59,053 nucleotides of DNA from Bradyrhizobium oropedii (GTDB lineage Bacteria; Pseudomonadota; Alphaproteobacteria; Rhizobiales; Xanthobacteraceae). Where the stretch lies: contig NZ_JACMYO010000026.1 in NCBI RefSeq assembly GCF_020889685.1, forward strand, positions 1 to 59,053, read 5' to 3'. The position numbers and the translations under genes are program-made. Shown piece after piece: positions 17,310 to 31,159 of this stretch. Below the pieces are notes generated by a model. That model was given only the letters and a program-made list of their open reading frames with translations. It was not told where the DNA came from and ran no database searches. The stretch's first letter is position 1; every line of letters begins with the position of its first letter.

Positions 17310-17386
17310 CGCGGGGTGGAGCAGCCCGGTAGCTCGTCAGGCTCATAACCTGAAGGTCATAGGTTCAAATCCTATCCCCGCAACCA
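17310..17386 (+). tRNA. Initiator tRNA-fMet (anticodon CAT)
   Basis: A 77-nt cloverleaf with encoded CCA. The acceptor stem GCGGGG pairs with CCCCGC, leaving the unpaired first C against A that marks an initiator tRNA. The D-arm runs GAGCAGCCCGGTAGCTCG. The anticodon arm AGGCTCATAACCT has a CAT anticodon. The T-arm is AGGTTCAAATCCT. Its 3' end (from TCCCCGCAACCA) is repeated at 23839 and 31146, with a degenerate copy at 17481. This makes it the insertion site of the downstream segments while leaving the tRNA itself intact. Confidence 0.97.
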
Positions 17387-17394
17387 AAATCGGC

Positions 17395-17434
17395 ACTAAA
17401 AGCCCAGCAATCCCAATGGATTGTTGGGTTTTTG
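17395..17434 (+). terminator. Rho-independent terminator of tRNA-fMet
   Basis: AAAAGCCCAGCAATCC pairs with GGATTGTTGGGTTTTT around a four-base loop, starting about 10 bases after the CCA. Comparable hairpins follow the other two clean tRNA-end copies at 23859 and 31179. Confidence 0.88.
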
Positions 17435-17480
17435 CATTTTTGCGTCGAACCGCTGCCCAAGTAATGTCAATGACGTAGTT

Positions 17481-17507
17481 TCGTAGGTTCAAATCCCTCG
17501 CAACCAA
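17481..17507 (+). repeat. Degenerate second copy of the tRNA-fMet 3' end
   Basis: TCGTAGGTTCAAATCC followed by CTCGCAACCAA copies the tRNA T-arm and acceptor end with a four-base deletion and one substitution. It lies just 95 bases past the tRNA and looks like a scar of an earlier integration or excision at this site. Confidence 0.7.
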
Positions 17508-18010
17508 TTGCGGTCGGCATGACTAGACCGAGCGAACAACCGGGGCCGACCTTCCCTGGCCATTCTGTGCGGCTTGATTGAAGTCTTGCGCGGCTTTGCG
17601 TGCGAGTATCCTGACCAACGCGCAAATCCGGTTTCGATGAGGTGGACAACGTCAGCTCGTTGGGCCCTTCGAATCCCATATCGATTGGTTCGGCTCCTGC
17701 TTTTATGGATCTTTTGATCGCGTGCCCGAACGCTGCGCGTATGATTGCTTCCTCCGTGCCTTTAACGCTCGAACTGATGAACCGTAGCAGCTTGCGTCGA
17801 GTGACTGGCTTGCCAGTTCGGCGAAATGCAGCCGCTGTCGATATTGGCCAAGCAAGAGCCGCCGGAGCATTGATTGATCGCTCGCGATGGGCTGGTTATT
17901 CAAAATACGGACAGCGCCGAAAAATCGCGGCCGCGCCAAAAGCAAAACGTTTGGAGCGCGAGGTTGCTTGAGGATGCTTCAAATAGCGTGGCGTCGCGGT
18001 CCGGCCAAAA
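17508..18010. other. Gene-free stretch in segment A
   Basis: Open frames exist on both strands (for example plus 17642-17971 and minus 17703-17945), but none shows a ribosome site, consistent third-position bias or a recognisable protein. It may be decayed coding DNA. Confidence 0.35.
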
Positions 18011-18235
18011 CTAGAGCATCGAGAGCACGACGATCCCGTCTTCGATCTCCCCCGAGGCGAGGCGCGTCCGCGCCATCTGCTCCAGCTCCGTCCGGTACTT
18101 ATGAAGATAACTAAGGGCTTGCTTGTCCGTCTGAAATGTCGTTGTGAGCCGGCACATCTGTCGAGCTGCGCCGAGCGCAAGAGAGAACGTTATTGTTCCG
18201 TCGCCGTGTGACTTGGCTCTCCGCACGATCTGCAT
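18011..18235 (-). CDS. Small hypothetical protein
   Basis: 74 residues with a compositionally normal frame: GDGTITFSLALGAARQMCRL, then HKYRTELEQMARTRLASGEI, ending DGIVVLSML. It looks like the short uncharacterised proteins common in Bradyrhizobium. The start at ATG 18235 is uncertain because the N-terminal MQIVRRAKSH is weakly patterned. It is soluble, with no motifs of known function. Confidence 0.6.
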   Translation of the reverse strand: MQIVRRAKSHGDGTITFSLALGAARQMCRLTTTFQTDKQALSYLHKYRTELEQMARTRLASGEIEDGIVVLSML

Positions 18236-18292
18236 TCTCCGGCTTGATGAGGCTTGGTCCTCGGCGCAATCATCGACCGCTGCCGAAGTTGA

Positions 18293-18538
18293 CTATCGCG
18301 GCAACTTCCTGGTGCGCTTCTTTGGCGGAGGCGCCGGCAATGGTGCCAGACCCGTTGCAGCAGCGGCGGCTTCCCTGGTCTCGCGGAGCTCTCGAAGTCG
18401 CGCCATGTTCTTGCGAGCCTCGACGGCCCGCCTTCCGACATCTGCCATCGCGCGCGCTCCTTCTTCAGCAGCCAATCGCTTTCGGTTGGCACGCGCCATG
18501 CTTTCGGGTGATAATTCTGCCGGCCTCTTGACGCTCAT
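18293..18538 (-). CDS. Small helical hypothetical protein
   Basis: 81 residues, mostly one long charged alanine-rich helix (MARANRKRLAAEEGARAMAD, then VGRRAVEARKNMARLREL). It has a proline/lysine tail (LPAPPPKKRTRKLPR) suggestive of a nucleic-acid or partner-binding surface. The ATG at 18538 was preferred to the in-frame GTG three codons upstream. It lies just downstream of the cold-shock gene on the same strand. Function unknown. Confidence 0.6.
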   Translation of the reverse strand: MSVKRPAELSPESMARANRKRLAAEEGARAMADVGRRAVEARKNMARLRELRETREAAAAATGLAPLPAPPPKKRTRKLPR

Positions 18539-29683: not shown

Positions 29684-29699
29684 GAAGGGGCAGAACAAG

Positions 29700-30422
29700 A
29701 TGGCAGAGACGGCGCTGACAAACACGATAGAACCGCCTGCACGCCCCGGAGGCTGGCGCGGCATCGCCGCTGACTGGTCCTCGGATCAGCGCGCCTTCAA
29801 GAACGTTTCCTGGGGGAAGGCCATGATGTGGATCTTCCTCCTCAGCGACACCTTCATCTTCAGCTGCTTCCTGCTGTCGTACATGACCGCGCGAATGTCC
29901 ACGACCGTGCCGTGGCCCAATCCCAGCGAGGTCTTCGCCCTCACGATCGGGGATAAGAGGATCCCGCTTATCCTGATCGCTATCATGACCTTCATCCTGA
30001 TCAGCAGCAGCGGGACGATGGCGATGGCCGTCAACTTCGGTTATCGCCGCGATCGCGTTAAAACTGCAGCCTTGATGCTGGCCACAGCGGCATTCGGCGC
30101 AACGTTCGTCGGAATGCAGGCCTTCGAATGGACCAAGCTGATCCTGGAGGGCGTCCGGCCCTGGGGCAATCCCTGGGGGGCGGCGCAGTTTGGTGCAAGC
30201 TTCTTCATGATCACCGGCTTCCATGGCACCCACGTGACGATCGGCGTGATTTTCCTGATCGCCATTGCGCGAAAGGTCTTGCGGGGAGACTTCGATGTCG
30301 AACGGCGCGGCTTCTTCACAAGCCGGAAAGGGCATTACGAGATCGTCGAGATCACCGGCCTGTACTGGCACTTCGTCGATCTCGTATGGGTGTTCATCTT
30401 TGCGCTTTTTTATCTCTGGTGA
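29700..30422 (+). CDS. coxP: Cytochrome c oxidase subunit III
   Basis: A 240-residue canonical subunit III. The helix GKAMMWIFLLSDTFIFSCFL carries the conserved Asp. FGASFFMITGFHGTHVTIGV follows, then EITGLYWHFVDLVWVFIFALFYLW. It stabilises subunit I and supports D-channel proton uptake. A GGAAGGGG-type ribosome site lies just upstream. It is the second subunit III of the operon and the more conserved of the two. Confidence 0.94.
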   Translation: MAETALTNTIEPPARPGGWRGIAADWSSDQRAFKNVSWGKAMMWIFLLSDTFIFSCFLLSYMTARMSTTVPWPNPSEVFALTIGDKRIPLILIAIMTFILISSSGTMAMAVNFGYRRDRVKTAALMLATAAFGATFVGMQAFEWTKLILEGVRPWGNPWGAAQFGASFFMITGFHGTHVTIGVIFLIAIARKVLRGDFDVERRGFFTSRKGHYEIVEITGLYWHFVDLVWVFIFALFYLW

Positions 30423-30431
30423 GGTCGCAGC

Positions 30432-30833
30432 ATGACAAACGTCGCGGTACATCTGGAAGCGCAGCAACACTCGCTGCAAGCTCACGTGCATGACGCGCTC
30501 GCATCAGGAACCGTGCACACAACGGGCCAGCAGCATCCGATCAAGCTTTATCTCGTGGTCTGGGGATGGTTGTTCGTTCTCAGCACCTGCTCCTATCTCG
30601 TCGACTACTTTGGCCTCCATGGTCATCTCCGATGGTCGCTGATCCTGCTGTTCATGGTGTTGAAGGCTGGCCTAATCGTCGCTGTCTTCATGCATATGGC
30701 CTGGGAGCGGCTGGCTCTGGCCTACGCGATCCTGCTTCCGCCGGTGTTGGTGCTGGTATTCGTGGCGATCATGATGTTCGAATCCGACTACACGCATCTG
30801 CTCCGGGTCATATTCTTCGCTCCGGCGACGTAG
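30432..30833 (+). CDS. Cytochrome c oxidase subunit IV-like protein
   Basis: 133 residues. A histidine-rich N-terminal tail (HLEAQQHSLQAHVHDAL) precedes three membrane helices: LYLVVWGWLFVLSTCSYLVD, SLILLFMVLKAGLIVAVFMH and LAYAILLPPVLVLVFVAIMM. The KAGLIVAVFMHM motif is that of prokaryotic COX4/CtaF subunits. It begins nine bases after the coxP stop. The His-rich tail could bind metal, but that is speculation. Confidence 0.87.
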   Translation: MTNVAVHLEAQQHSLQAHVHDALASGTVHTTGQQHPIKLYLVVWGWLFVLSTCSYLVDYFGLHGHLRWSLILLFMVLKAGLIVAVFMHMAWERLALAYAILLPPVLVLVFVAIMMFESDYTHLLRVIFFAPAT

Positions 30834-30857
30834 CTACGTAAGCGTGGAGGTTTTTGG

Positions 30858-31052
30858 ATGCAGTTTGCCGTTGGGTTCAAACTGAACGGGAAGGGAGACC
30901 ACGTCGTCCTGGACGGACAAGACGCGCTCGCCGCGGCGCTGAAGGTGAAGGCAGAGCTTCCGGAAGCCGTCATTATGTATGTGCGCCCACAAAACCGGCG
31001 TGGCGACGCCCGTCATCCGTCACATGGGCTCGCCGACGACGTTGTTCGATGA
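30858..31052 (+). CDS. Small hypothetical protein after the oxidase operon
   Basis: 64 residues from ATG 30858, with GGAGG 7 nt upstream: MQFAVGFKLNGKGDHVVLDG, then QDALAAALKVKAELPEAVIM. It is soluble, with no known motif. The 24-base gap from the subunit IV gene and strong ribosome site suggest it is the last cistron of the oxidase operon. Function unknown. Confidence 0.65.
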   Translation: MQFAVGFKLNGKGDHVVLDGQDALAAALKVKAELPEAVIMYVRPQNRRGDARHPSHGLADDVVR

Positions 31053-31136
31053 GAGGCCGAAGAGCGGAGTTCTTTCGCCCGGTTAGCCGCGCCTAATCGC
31101 GCCAGATCGGAACAATCAGCGAATGTCGGTATCGGT

Positions 31137-31159
31137 GGTTGCGCCTCCCCGCAACCAAA
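31137..31159 (+). repeat. Duplicated tRNA-fMet end / att-like junction 3
   Basis: GGTTGC-N8-GCAACC (31137-31156) overlaps TCCCCGCAACCAAA (31146-31159), the tRNA-fMet 3' end. The same dyad with the same spacing is at 23830. It marks the right edge of the tRNA-anchored region. Confidence 0.8.

What the first reader, a model, noticed from the sequence alone, without database searches (positions are those of the whole stretch)
17310..31159. Two tandem tRNA-fMet-anchored segments without an integrase
The 3' end of initiator tRNA-fMet (TCCCCGCAACCA plus flanking A/T) is intact in the tRNA and repeated at 23839 and 31146, dividing 13.8 kb into two units of about 6.5 and 7.3 kb. Direct repeats of a tRNA end are the hallmark of tyrosine-integrase insertion, yet no integrase, excisionase or relaxase gene is visible in either unit. 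Use of the initiator tRNA is uncommon as an island site. They may be satellite-type elements moved by an integrase elsewhere, or remnants.
Basis: partly seen in the sequence, partly recalled or inferred. Interest (0 to 1): 0.8.

Follow-up and report, generated by a model that had tools for sequence, protein, structure and literature searches.

The report
Two integrase-less islands at initiator tRNA
Two mobile DNA segments, one carrying a respiratory oxidase operon, sit back to back behind the initiator tRNA gene of a Bradyrhizobium relative; they were likely placed there by serine-type integrases that are now missing, a family whose genes in related strains run into the tRNA gene so that the tRNA's opposite strand writes the last part of the integrase.

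Summary
TCCCCGCAACCA occurs only at 17375, 23839 and 31146 in the window. Relatives give the missing states: B. tropiciagri SZCCT0338 has an empty site, B. uaiense has only the second unit. So unit 2 (7.3 kb, with a cytochrome oxidase operon) went in first and unit 1 (6.5 kb) later, between tRNA and unit 2. The right ends of both units carry half-sites that pair, 11-13 of 14 bases, with the left half-sites of two large serine recombinase (LSR) types sitting at tRNA-fMet in other Bradyrhizobium genomes. There the LSR gene runs antisense into the tRNA; all six intact ones end in VAGIGFEPMTFRL, written by the tRNA's other strand. Of the 120 best-scoring homologues 109 end in such a tail, and four without it have bodies identical to proteins that have it. 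The window's units lack the LSR and its left half-site, and only fragments of that LSR family were found in the assembly, so they are most likely stranded remnants. Serine integrases at tRNA genes are rare but known. How the left ends were replaced is unresolved.

The parts
17310..17386 (+). Intact initiator tRNA-fMet gene (CAT); insertion target, its last 12 bases are copy 1 of the repeat
   Evidence: ARAGORN; core match; a match in 60 of 60 Bradyrhizobium genomes, some at only 92% identity
17397..17433 (+). Terminator-like hairpin at the left end of unit 1 (behind the tRNA)
   Evidence: Sequence; 64 of 64 distinct tRNA-fMet loci have such a hairpin within 95 bases against 337 of 2000 random 95-mers
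17484..17506 (+). Degenerate second copy of the tRNA T-arm and acceptor end
   Evidence: Sequence; similar pieces at the same place in L081, L092, L093, L183
17387..23838 (.). Unit 1 (6452 bp), the younger insertion; G+C 58.5%
   Evidence: Absent from L080, where unit 2 directly follows the tRNA; body 88-90% identical to segments at other places in G010, G192, G048
18634..18882 (-). Cold-shock domain protein gene in unit 1
   Evidence: PF00313 E=1.5e-24
19131..19532 (+). Ribosomal protein S21-like gene in unit 1
   Evidence: PF01165 E=9e-20; TIGR00030 above its cut-off
21192..21473 (-). DUF1488 gene in unit 1
   Evidence: PF07369 E=9.8e-10
23815..23850 (+). attR-type junction unit 1/unit 2: serine-recombinase half-site of type 3 (ATAGCAATTTGAGATGGTTGCACG) plus tRNA end copy 2
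   Evidence: Outer arm pairs 12/14 with the left half-sites at L168 and L090, 11/14 at L174 and 10/14 at L087; the same arm lies downstream of type-3 recombinase genes in G004 and G017 and was absent from 5 genomes with other types, but present in G037, which has no recombinase next to its tRNA
23861..23902 (+). Terminator-like hairpin at the left end of unit 2
   Evidence: Sequence; follows the tRNA directly in L080
23851..31145 (.). Unit 2 (7295 bp), the older insertion; G+C 61.3%
   Evidence: Directly behind tRNA-fMet in L080, L083, L089 and L091; its start lies behind other elements in G037 and G043
23926..25065 (-). SDR/NAD-epimerase-like gene (true start probably later; the ORF overlaps the next gene)
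   Evidence: PF13460, PF01370
24857..25891 (-). DUF2189 membrane protein gene
   Evidence: PF09955 E=2.9e-41
26299..30833 (+). Cytochrome oxidase operon: subunit II (26299-27132), I (27207-28982), III (28979-29683), III (29700-30422), IV (30432-30833)
   Evidence: PF00116, PF00115, PF00510 twice, PF03626; TIGR02866 and TIGR02891 above their cut-offs
31122..31157 (+). attR-type junction unit 2/chromosome: half-site of type 1 (AATGTCGGTATCGGTGGTTGCGCC) plus tRNA end copy 3
   Evidence: Outer arm pairs 12/14 with the left half-sites at L107, L167 and L169 and 13/14 at L181; present in L080, eroded in L091, not recognisable in L083 and L089
31158..31215 (+). Native chromosomal sequence and terminator that followed tRNA-fMet before both insertions
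   Evidence: Directly follows the tRNA in the empty site of B. tropiciagri SZCCT0338, L082
31394..32764 (-). HerA-like ATPase gene, chromosomal right flank
   Evidence: PF01935; 96% identical in L082, where its near end lies about 276 bp behind the tRNA

Best explanation
The segments 17387-23838 and 23851-31145 are two successive insertions at the 3' end of the initiator tRNA gene, each likely made by a different large serine recombinase whose gene has since been lost. Shown: the empty site, the one-unit state, the order of insertion (unit 2 first, newest next to the tRNA), and the match of each right end to the left half-site of a known LSR type. Inferred: an LSR on a circular element recombines at a crossover at or next to the TC of TCCCCGCAACCA; the element brings its own CCCGCAACCA and a terminator, so the tRNA stays whole and terminated, and the displaced original end marks the far side as P-half + TC + CCCGCAACCA. 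In intact relatives the LSR gene is antisense and ends inside the tRNA, so integration would exchange its last codons for ones written by the tRNA's opposite strand. In the window the left part of each element, with LSR and left half-site, is gone; I infer later insertions between tRNA and LSR followed by deletion. Without the left half-sites and the enzyme the units should be immobile now, with the oxidase operon kept intact as cargo.
For: Empty site and one-unit site at base resolution. Unit 2's left end has had different neighbours on its tRNA side: the tRNA itself in L080, L083, L089, L091, unit 1 in the window, other elements in G037 and G043. An LSR reaches into the tRNA in 11 of 67 fetched tRNA-fMet loci (64 distinct), 6 with an open full-length gene. 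Arm pairing is 11-13/14 with the matching type; with other LSRs 3-7/14 for unit 1 except L087 at 10/14, and 3-8/14 for unit 2; with 22 non-LSR left ends 0-5/14; random 14-mers reach 12 about 5e-6 of the time. A prediction was met: type-3 arms lie downstream of type-3 LSRs in 2 of 2 genomes tested and in 0 of 5 tested genomes with type 1 or 2. tRNA-to-far-site spans pair type 1 LSR with a type 1 right arm (G005, G046) and type 2 with type 2 (G010). Decay states exist: broken LSRs at L087, L090, L169, L174. For this family the own genome showed only an N-terminal piece (C201) and a C-terminal piece (C321).
Against: The left ends of both units do not carry an LSR half-site (unit 1's left arm 1/14 with its own right arm, unit 2's 3/14), and no step showing how they were replaced was seen in this locus. 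This non-LSR left end recurs with several kinds of right end (L093, L184, window), which could mean a class of its own. Unit 2's right arm is recognisable in the window, L080 and (eroded) L091, but not in L083 and L089, although 9.6 kb downstream were visible. No LSR was found in any copy of unit 2. G037 has a type-3 arm without an LSR beside its tRNA, and G054 a type-2 LSR without a right arm within 2 mismatches. Excision, circles and recombination are untested. The arm test rests on few LSR types (type 1: 4 loci, type 2: 3, type 3: 3, one other).
Confidence: 0.78

Rival explanations
1. Both units are non-autonomous elements that keep their own left-end type and are moved in trans by LSRs of resident islands, through a hybrid site made of an LSR right half and a tRNA-like left half.
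For: The same non-LSR left-end class recurs next to the tRNA with different right-arm types; unit 2 keeps a similar left end in all five genomes where it was read whole and a type-1 right arm in three of them; unit 2 is more diverged than the flanking genes (window against L080 92.5% versus 96.0%, against L083 86.6% versus 92.9%), so plain vertical descent is not shown; G193 has a type-1-like right arm followed by this left end and, 2.3 kb on, unit-1-like DNA.
Against: Only fragments of the LSR family in the window's assembly; the left ends do not pair with the right arms.
Confidence: 0.15
2. Tyrosine-integrase islands or remnants of them.
For: Long tRNA-fMet 3' pieces, many of 45-53 bases, occur in the genus, one in the window's own assembly (C176:485-532); a degenerate T-arm copy lies at 17484-17506.
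Against: The three window repeats share only TCCCCGCAACCA plus A's; no PF00589 match on the window's contig; right arms match LSR half-sites.
Confidence: 0.06
3. Ancestral DNA with chance copies of a 12-mer.
For: None found.
Against: Empty and one-unit relatives with exact junctions; 0 of 100 shuffles reach 3 copies.
Confidence: 0.01

Closest known systems
Dehalococcoides ssrA genomic islands (serine recombinase DsiB; PMC3146451, passages read)
   Same: Serine-recombinase islands in tandem at an RNA gene, short direct repeats of its 3' end, a non-matching motif just before the repeat, integration module at the left end on the reverse strand; 15 islands there lack the module
   Different: Target is tmRNA, 20 bp repeat, CcrB-like enzyme with a second small recombinase; no note in the passages read of the integrase gene reading into the RNA gene
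Paracoccus phage vB_PamS_Pami6 (serine recombinase, tRNA-Met; PMC6536676, passages read)
   Same: Alphaproteobacterial serine recombinase at a tRNA-Met(CAT) gene
   Different: An active phage; it is the only serine-recombinase (pro)phage of that study with a predicted site; no phage gene was recognised in the units here
Mycobacterium AICEs at tRNA-Leu and phage phiRSM1 at tRNA-Ser (PMC3218068, passages read)
   Same: Serine recombinases that use tRNA genes, called rare there
   Different: Other tRNAs, other bacteria, elements with their integrase
Bradyrhizobium genomic islands, incl. the trnM1-element of USDA110 (PMC3927601, PMC4791120, passages read)
   Same: tRNA-anchored islands, some in tandem, some without integrase; USDA6 has low-G+C regions at two trnM-CAT genes with no duplications in either end
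   Different: Duplications in the table rows I saw are 18-50 bp; a 12 bp LSR footprint could be overlooked (my inference)

Membership tests
tRNA-integrated genomic island (general) | Displaced copy of the tRNA 3' end at the far boundary | tested here: met
tRNA-integrated genomic island (general) | Precise absence in relatives | tested here: met
   L082 empty, L080 one unit
tRNA-integrated genomic island (general) | Integrase gene aboard | tested here: not met
Tyrosine-integrase island | Identity block reaching into the T or anticodon arm (often 45-53 bp in this genus) | tested here: not met
   12 bp plus A's here; longer pieces elsewhere
LSR island at tRNA-fMet (family seen in relatives) | Right half-site of an LSR type | tested here: met
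   prediction test
LSR island at tRNA-fMet (family seen in relatives) | LSR gene and its left half-site next to the tRNA | tested here: not met
   No LSR in the window by Pfam family or home-made profile; left arms 1/14 and 3/14. Hence 'remnant of', not 'member'
LSR island at tRNA-fMet (family seen in relatives) | Recombination of attP with the tRNA by the enzyme | not testable with these tools
   Bench assay needed
Integrative conjugative or mobilizable element | Relaxase or conjugation genes | tested here: not met
   None among the 27 Pfam-scanned ORFs of the units; other short ORFs not scanned

The most novel reading that the evidence does not exclude
The initiator-tRNA LSR family uses its target as a switch: attP lies inside the last codons of the integrase gene, so the free circle makes one C-terminal tail and the integrated element makes another, VAGxGFEPxxFRL, written by the antisense strand of the tRNA. 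The tail swap tells the enzyme whether it is in or out and sets the direction of recombination; the window shows what is left once that module is lost.
Probability: 0.15. Interest if true: 0.85.

Novelty: new variant of a known kind. Interest (0 to 1): 0.55.

Why it matters
[quoted passage not shown] Close homologues of the recombinase carry names from many alphaproteobacterial genera, and records with one body and two tails exist, which makes a test of tail function simple. For Bradyrhizobium it explains how a respiratory oxidase operon came to sit behind the initiator tRNA, and suggests that this tRNA is a busy integration site there.

Tried and rejected
Rejected: chance repeats; ancestral gene order; a tyrosine integrase encoded in the window. 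Considered and not proven: that the non-LSR left ends are native flanks of another lineage, or the scar of a tyrosine island whose far end was deleted. The own-genome site at C176, a 48-base tRNA piece followed directly by a type-2-like LSR left arm, suggests that other insertions can split an LSR element from the tRNA, but not that this happened in the window. A search for LSR remnants in the units by profile gave only the match of the tRNA's antisense strand and its neighbour (17346-17462, 20.9 bits), which I take as trivial; tblastn of the recombinases gave none there. The left-flank tree shows unit 2 patchy among relatives but cannot separate loss from repeated gain. I first took unit 2's divergence as evidence of vertical descent; the numbers do not bear that out, so I lowered the main confidence from 0.80 to 0.78 and raised the trans-mobilised rival from 0.13 to 0.15. 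Unit 1-like bodies lie near tRNA-Phe in B. uaiense (L219) and tRNA-Ser in G003 (L221), but no tRNA was found within the fetched 16-17 kb around the copies in G010 (two) and G192, so I do not claim that this cargo always travels with tRNA islands.

Limits of counts: 40 of the 59 other sampled genomes were fetched at the tRNA, chosen by hand; those whose tRNA matched at only 92% and several others were left out. 26 of the 80 loci were used (Bradyrhizobium and nearest Hyphomicrobiales ones with the tRNA), with at most 9.6 kb downstream. The tail count (109 of 120) covers only the best-scoring 120 of 7954 homologues, scoring favours a shared tail, and at least two of the eleven others (P0070, P0102) look cut short. 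The terminator test is lenient (17% of random segments pass). The home-made recombinase profiles are rough.
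Full report
Observation. The tRNA is an intact tRNA-Met(CAT), initiator type by its sequence, and TCCCCGCAACCA recurs exactly at 23839 and 31146 and nowhere else in the window. Copies 2 and 3 sit in palindromes TGGTTGC-N8-GCAACCA that copy 1 lacks, and each copy is followed by a hairpin with a T run. The whole assembly (9.04 Mb, 513 contigs) has two further exact copies, C61 and C321.

Empty and one-unit sites. Using the aldehyde dehydrogenase gene left of the tRNA (PF00171) I fetched named relatives. In B. tropiciagri SZCCT0338 (L082) the tRNA is followed directly by aatctctttaaccggcagagatgaaaagcccgcc..., the sequence that follows copy 3 in the window, and the near end of the HerA-like gene is about 276 bases on. 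In B. uaiense UFLA03-164 (L080) the tRNA is followed directly by aaattggtagaaagccccggc..., which follows copy 2 in the window; the oxidase unit is complete and the next copy of the core ends 7355 bases on. B. tropiciagri SEMIA 6148 (L083), CER78 (L089) and NAS96.2 (L091) also carry the oxidase unit next to the tRNA: 4 of 26 named loci in all, with at most 9.6 kb downstream visible. The far core with a type-1 arm is clear in L080 and eroded in L091, where another element follows; in L083 and L089 I could not recognise it. In G037 and G043 the start of the unit (DUF2189 region) lies behind other elements, each ending in a type-1 right arm. So unit 2 came first and unit 1 was slipped in between, as accretion at a tRNA predicts.

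Cargo. Unit 2: SDR-like gene, DUF2189 membrane protein, and oxidase subunits II, I, III, III, IV. The gene order resembles the alternative oxidase coxMNOP of Bradyrhizobium; that name is recalled, not tested. Unit 1: cold-shock protein, S21-like protein, DUF1488 and short ORFs; its body is 88-90% identical to segments in G192, G010 and G048 that are not directly behind tRNA-fMet.

Which integrase. In 60 genomes of the genus, own included, 21 have sites matching GGTTGCGCCTCCCCGCAACCA at up to 2 mismatches. Their left arms fall into a few types. In B. mercantei (L107) a 565-residue ORF runs antisense toward the tRNA and ends inside it. It has the Resolvase, Recombinase and zinc-ribbon domains of large serine recombinases. 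Across 67 fetched tRNA-fMet loci, 64 of them distinct (window, 26 named, 40 from the sample), 11 have such a recombinase reaching into the tRNA: six open and full length (L107, L167, L168, L172, L181, L204), one in two pieces (L169), three broken (L087, L090, L174), and one partial, near a contig end (L206).

Half-site pairing. Serine integrase attP sites are imperfect palindromes (recalled). I compared the outer 14 bases of the right arms with left arms: 11 LSR, 14 of the non-LSR class, 8 native or other. Unit 1's arm matches L168 and L090 at 12/14, L174 at 11/14 and L087 at 10/14 (other LSRs 3-7). Unit 2's arm matches L107, L167 and L169 at 12/14 and L181 at 13/14 (other LSRs 3-8). Non-LSR left ends score 0-4 and native flanks 1-5; random 14-mers reach 12 at about 5e-6. 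The units' own left arms score 1/14 (unit 1) and 3/14 (unit 2) with their own right arms. This gave a prediction: genomes with a type-3 LSR should have a type-3 right arm downstream. It was met in G004 (exact, 80.7 kb downstream, followed by a native-type flank) and G017 (2 mismatches, 10.2 kb downstream), and no such arm was found in five genomes with type 1 or 2 LSRs (G002, G005, G010, G046, G054). Spans from tRNA to far site agree: type 1 with type 1 in G005 (70.7 kb) and G046 (487 kb), type 2 with type 2 in G010 (234 kb, with the HerA-like gene behind it); whether each span is one element was not checked. Against: G037 has a type-3 arm on another contig without an LSR beside its tRNA, G054 has a type-2 LSR but no right arm within 2 mismatches, G002's type-1 arm lies on the other strand far away, and G004 also has a type-1 arm 49 kb from the tRNA.

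Tail exchange. The reading frame of all six intact LSRs crosses the attachment core and ends VAGIGFEPMTFRL, which is frame 3 of the tRNA's reverse complement. At natural junctions of the attP kind (C321 in the own genome, L061, L079) the same frame continues into other tails, RRNHRYRHS... or RRNTRLLRLIEQEIPKL.... Among the 120 best of 7954 homologues, 109 end in a tRNA-type tail. Eleven do not, at least two of them apparently cut short, and four (P0014, P0101, P0104, P0111) are identical over 555 compared residues to a protein that does (P0009, P0018, P0024, P0018). So bodies with two tails are seen in the records; any function of the exchange is untested.

What the window has lost. Searched with the alignment of the six LSRs, the assembly shows no intact member of this family: an N-terminal piece with a stop on C201 and a C-terminal piece on C321; the open LSRs on C41 and C78 are distant (27-28% identity), and PF07508 also finds C318, C61 and C301. 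The assembly is a draft, so absence is not proof. C176 holds a 48-base tRNA piece followed by a type-2-like LSR arm, which suggests that another insertion can separate an LSR element from its tRNA. I infer insertion plus deletion for the window's left ends.

Terminators. All 64 distinct loci have a terminator-like hairpin within 95 bases of the tRNA whatever follows, against 337 of 2000 random segments. At C321 that hairpin lies within the recombinase's own coding sequence, on the other strand.

Literature. Searches. [quoted passage not shown] Mesorhizobium has serine recombinases on 6 of 79 elements, sites not given in the passages read (PMC8627217). PMC5704250, PMC12884075, PMC10083194 and PMC11476347 were also looked into by passages. 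I found no report of a tail exchange with the tRNA in these searches; the main TIGER paper is not held.

Verdict.

Noticed in passing
G000:C61:10531 (L023), G000:C321:1827 (L024): Two more attR/attP-like sites in the same assembly; at C321 a truncated LSR reading frame runs straight through the site, at C61 broken LSR pieces of another family lie about 1 kb away.
   Followed up: partly
G000:C176:485-532 (L243): A 48-base tRNA-fMet 3' piece followed directly by a type-2-like LSR left arm, suggesting a tyrosine-type island inserted next to an older LSR island.
   Followed up: partly
L219 (G048 C477), L221 (G003 C30): Unit-1-like DNA (cold shock, S21) lies 1.3-1.5 kb behind tRNA-Phe in B. uaiense and behind tRNA-Ser(GGA) in G003, in the same orientation as behind tRNA-fMet here.
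   Followed up: partly
G013:C152:19673-25373, G047:C26:97526-104557: A 45 bp piece or a nearly full second copy of tRNA-fMet 5-7 kb from the first: the same tRNA may be shared by two integrase classes.
   Followed up: no
G000:C98:968-3785 and G000:C192:6027-8376: Three tyrosine recombinase genes in a row at each place, resembling recombinase-in-trio elements (name recalled).
   Followed up: no
window 10438-13491: A patch with lower third-position G+C (0.67-0.74 against about 0.85) in the left flank, possibly another acquired segment.
   Followed up: no
L224 (G193 C1:6771339): A type-1-like right arm (core one C shorter) followed by the same non-LSR left end and, 2.3 kb on, unit-1-like DNA: the odd left end and the unit 1 body go together in another genome.
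   Followed up: partly
L083 and L089, 7.2-9.6 kb behind the tRNA: The oxidase unit's far end lacks a recognisable core and type-1 arm although its body is intact; in L083 about 1.2 kb of extra DNA lies between the unit and the HerA flank.
   Followed up: partly
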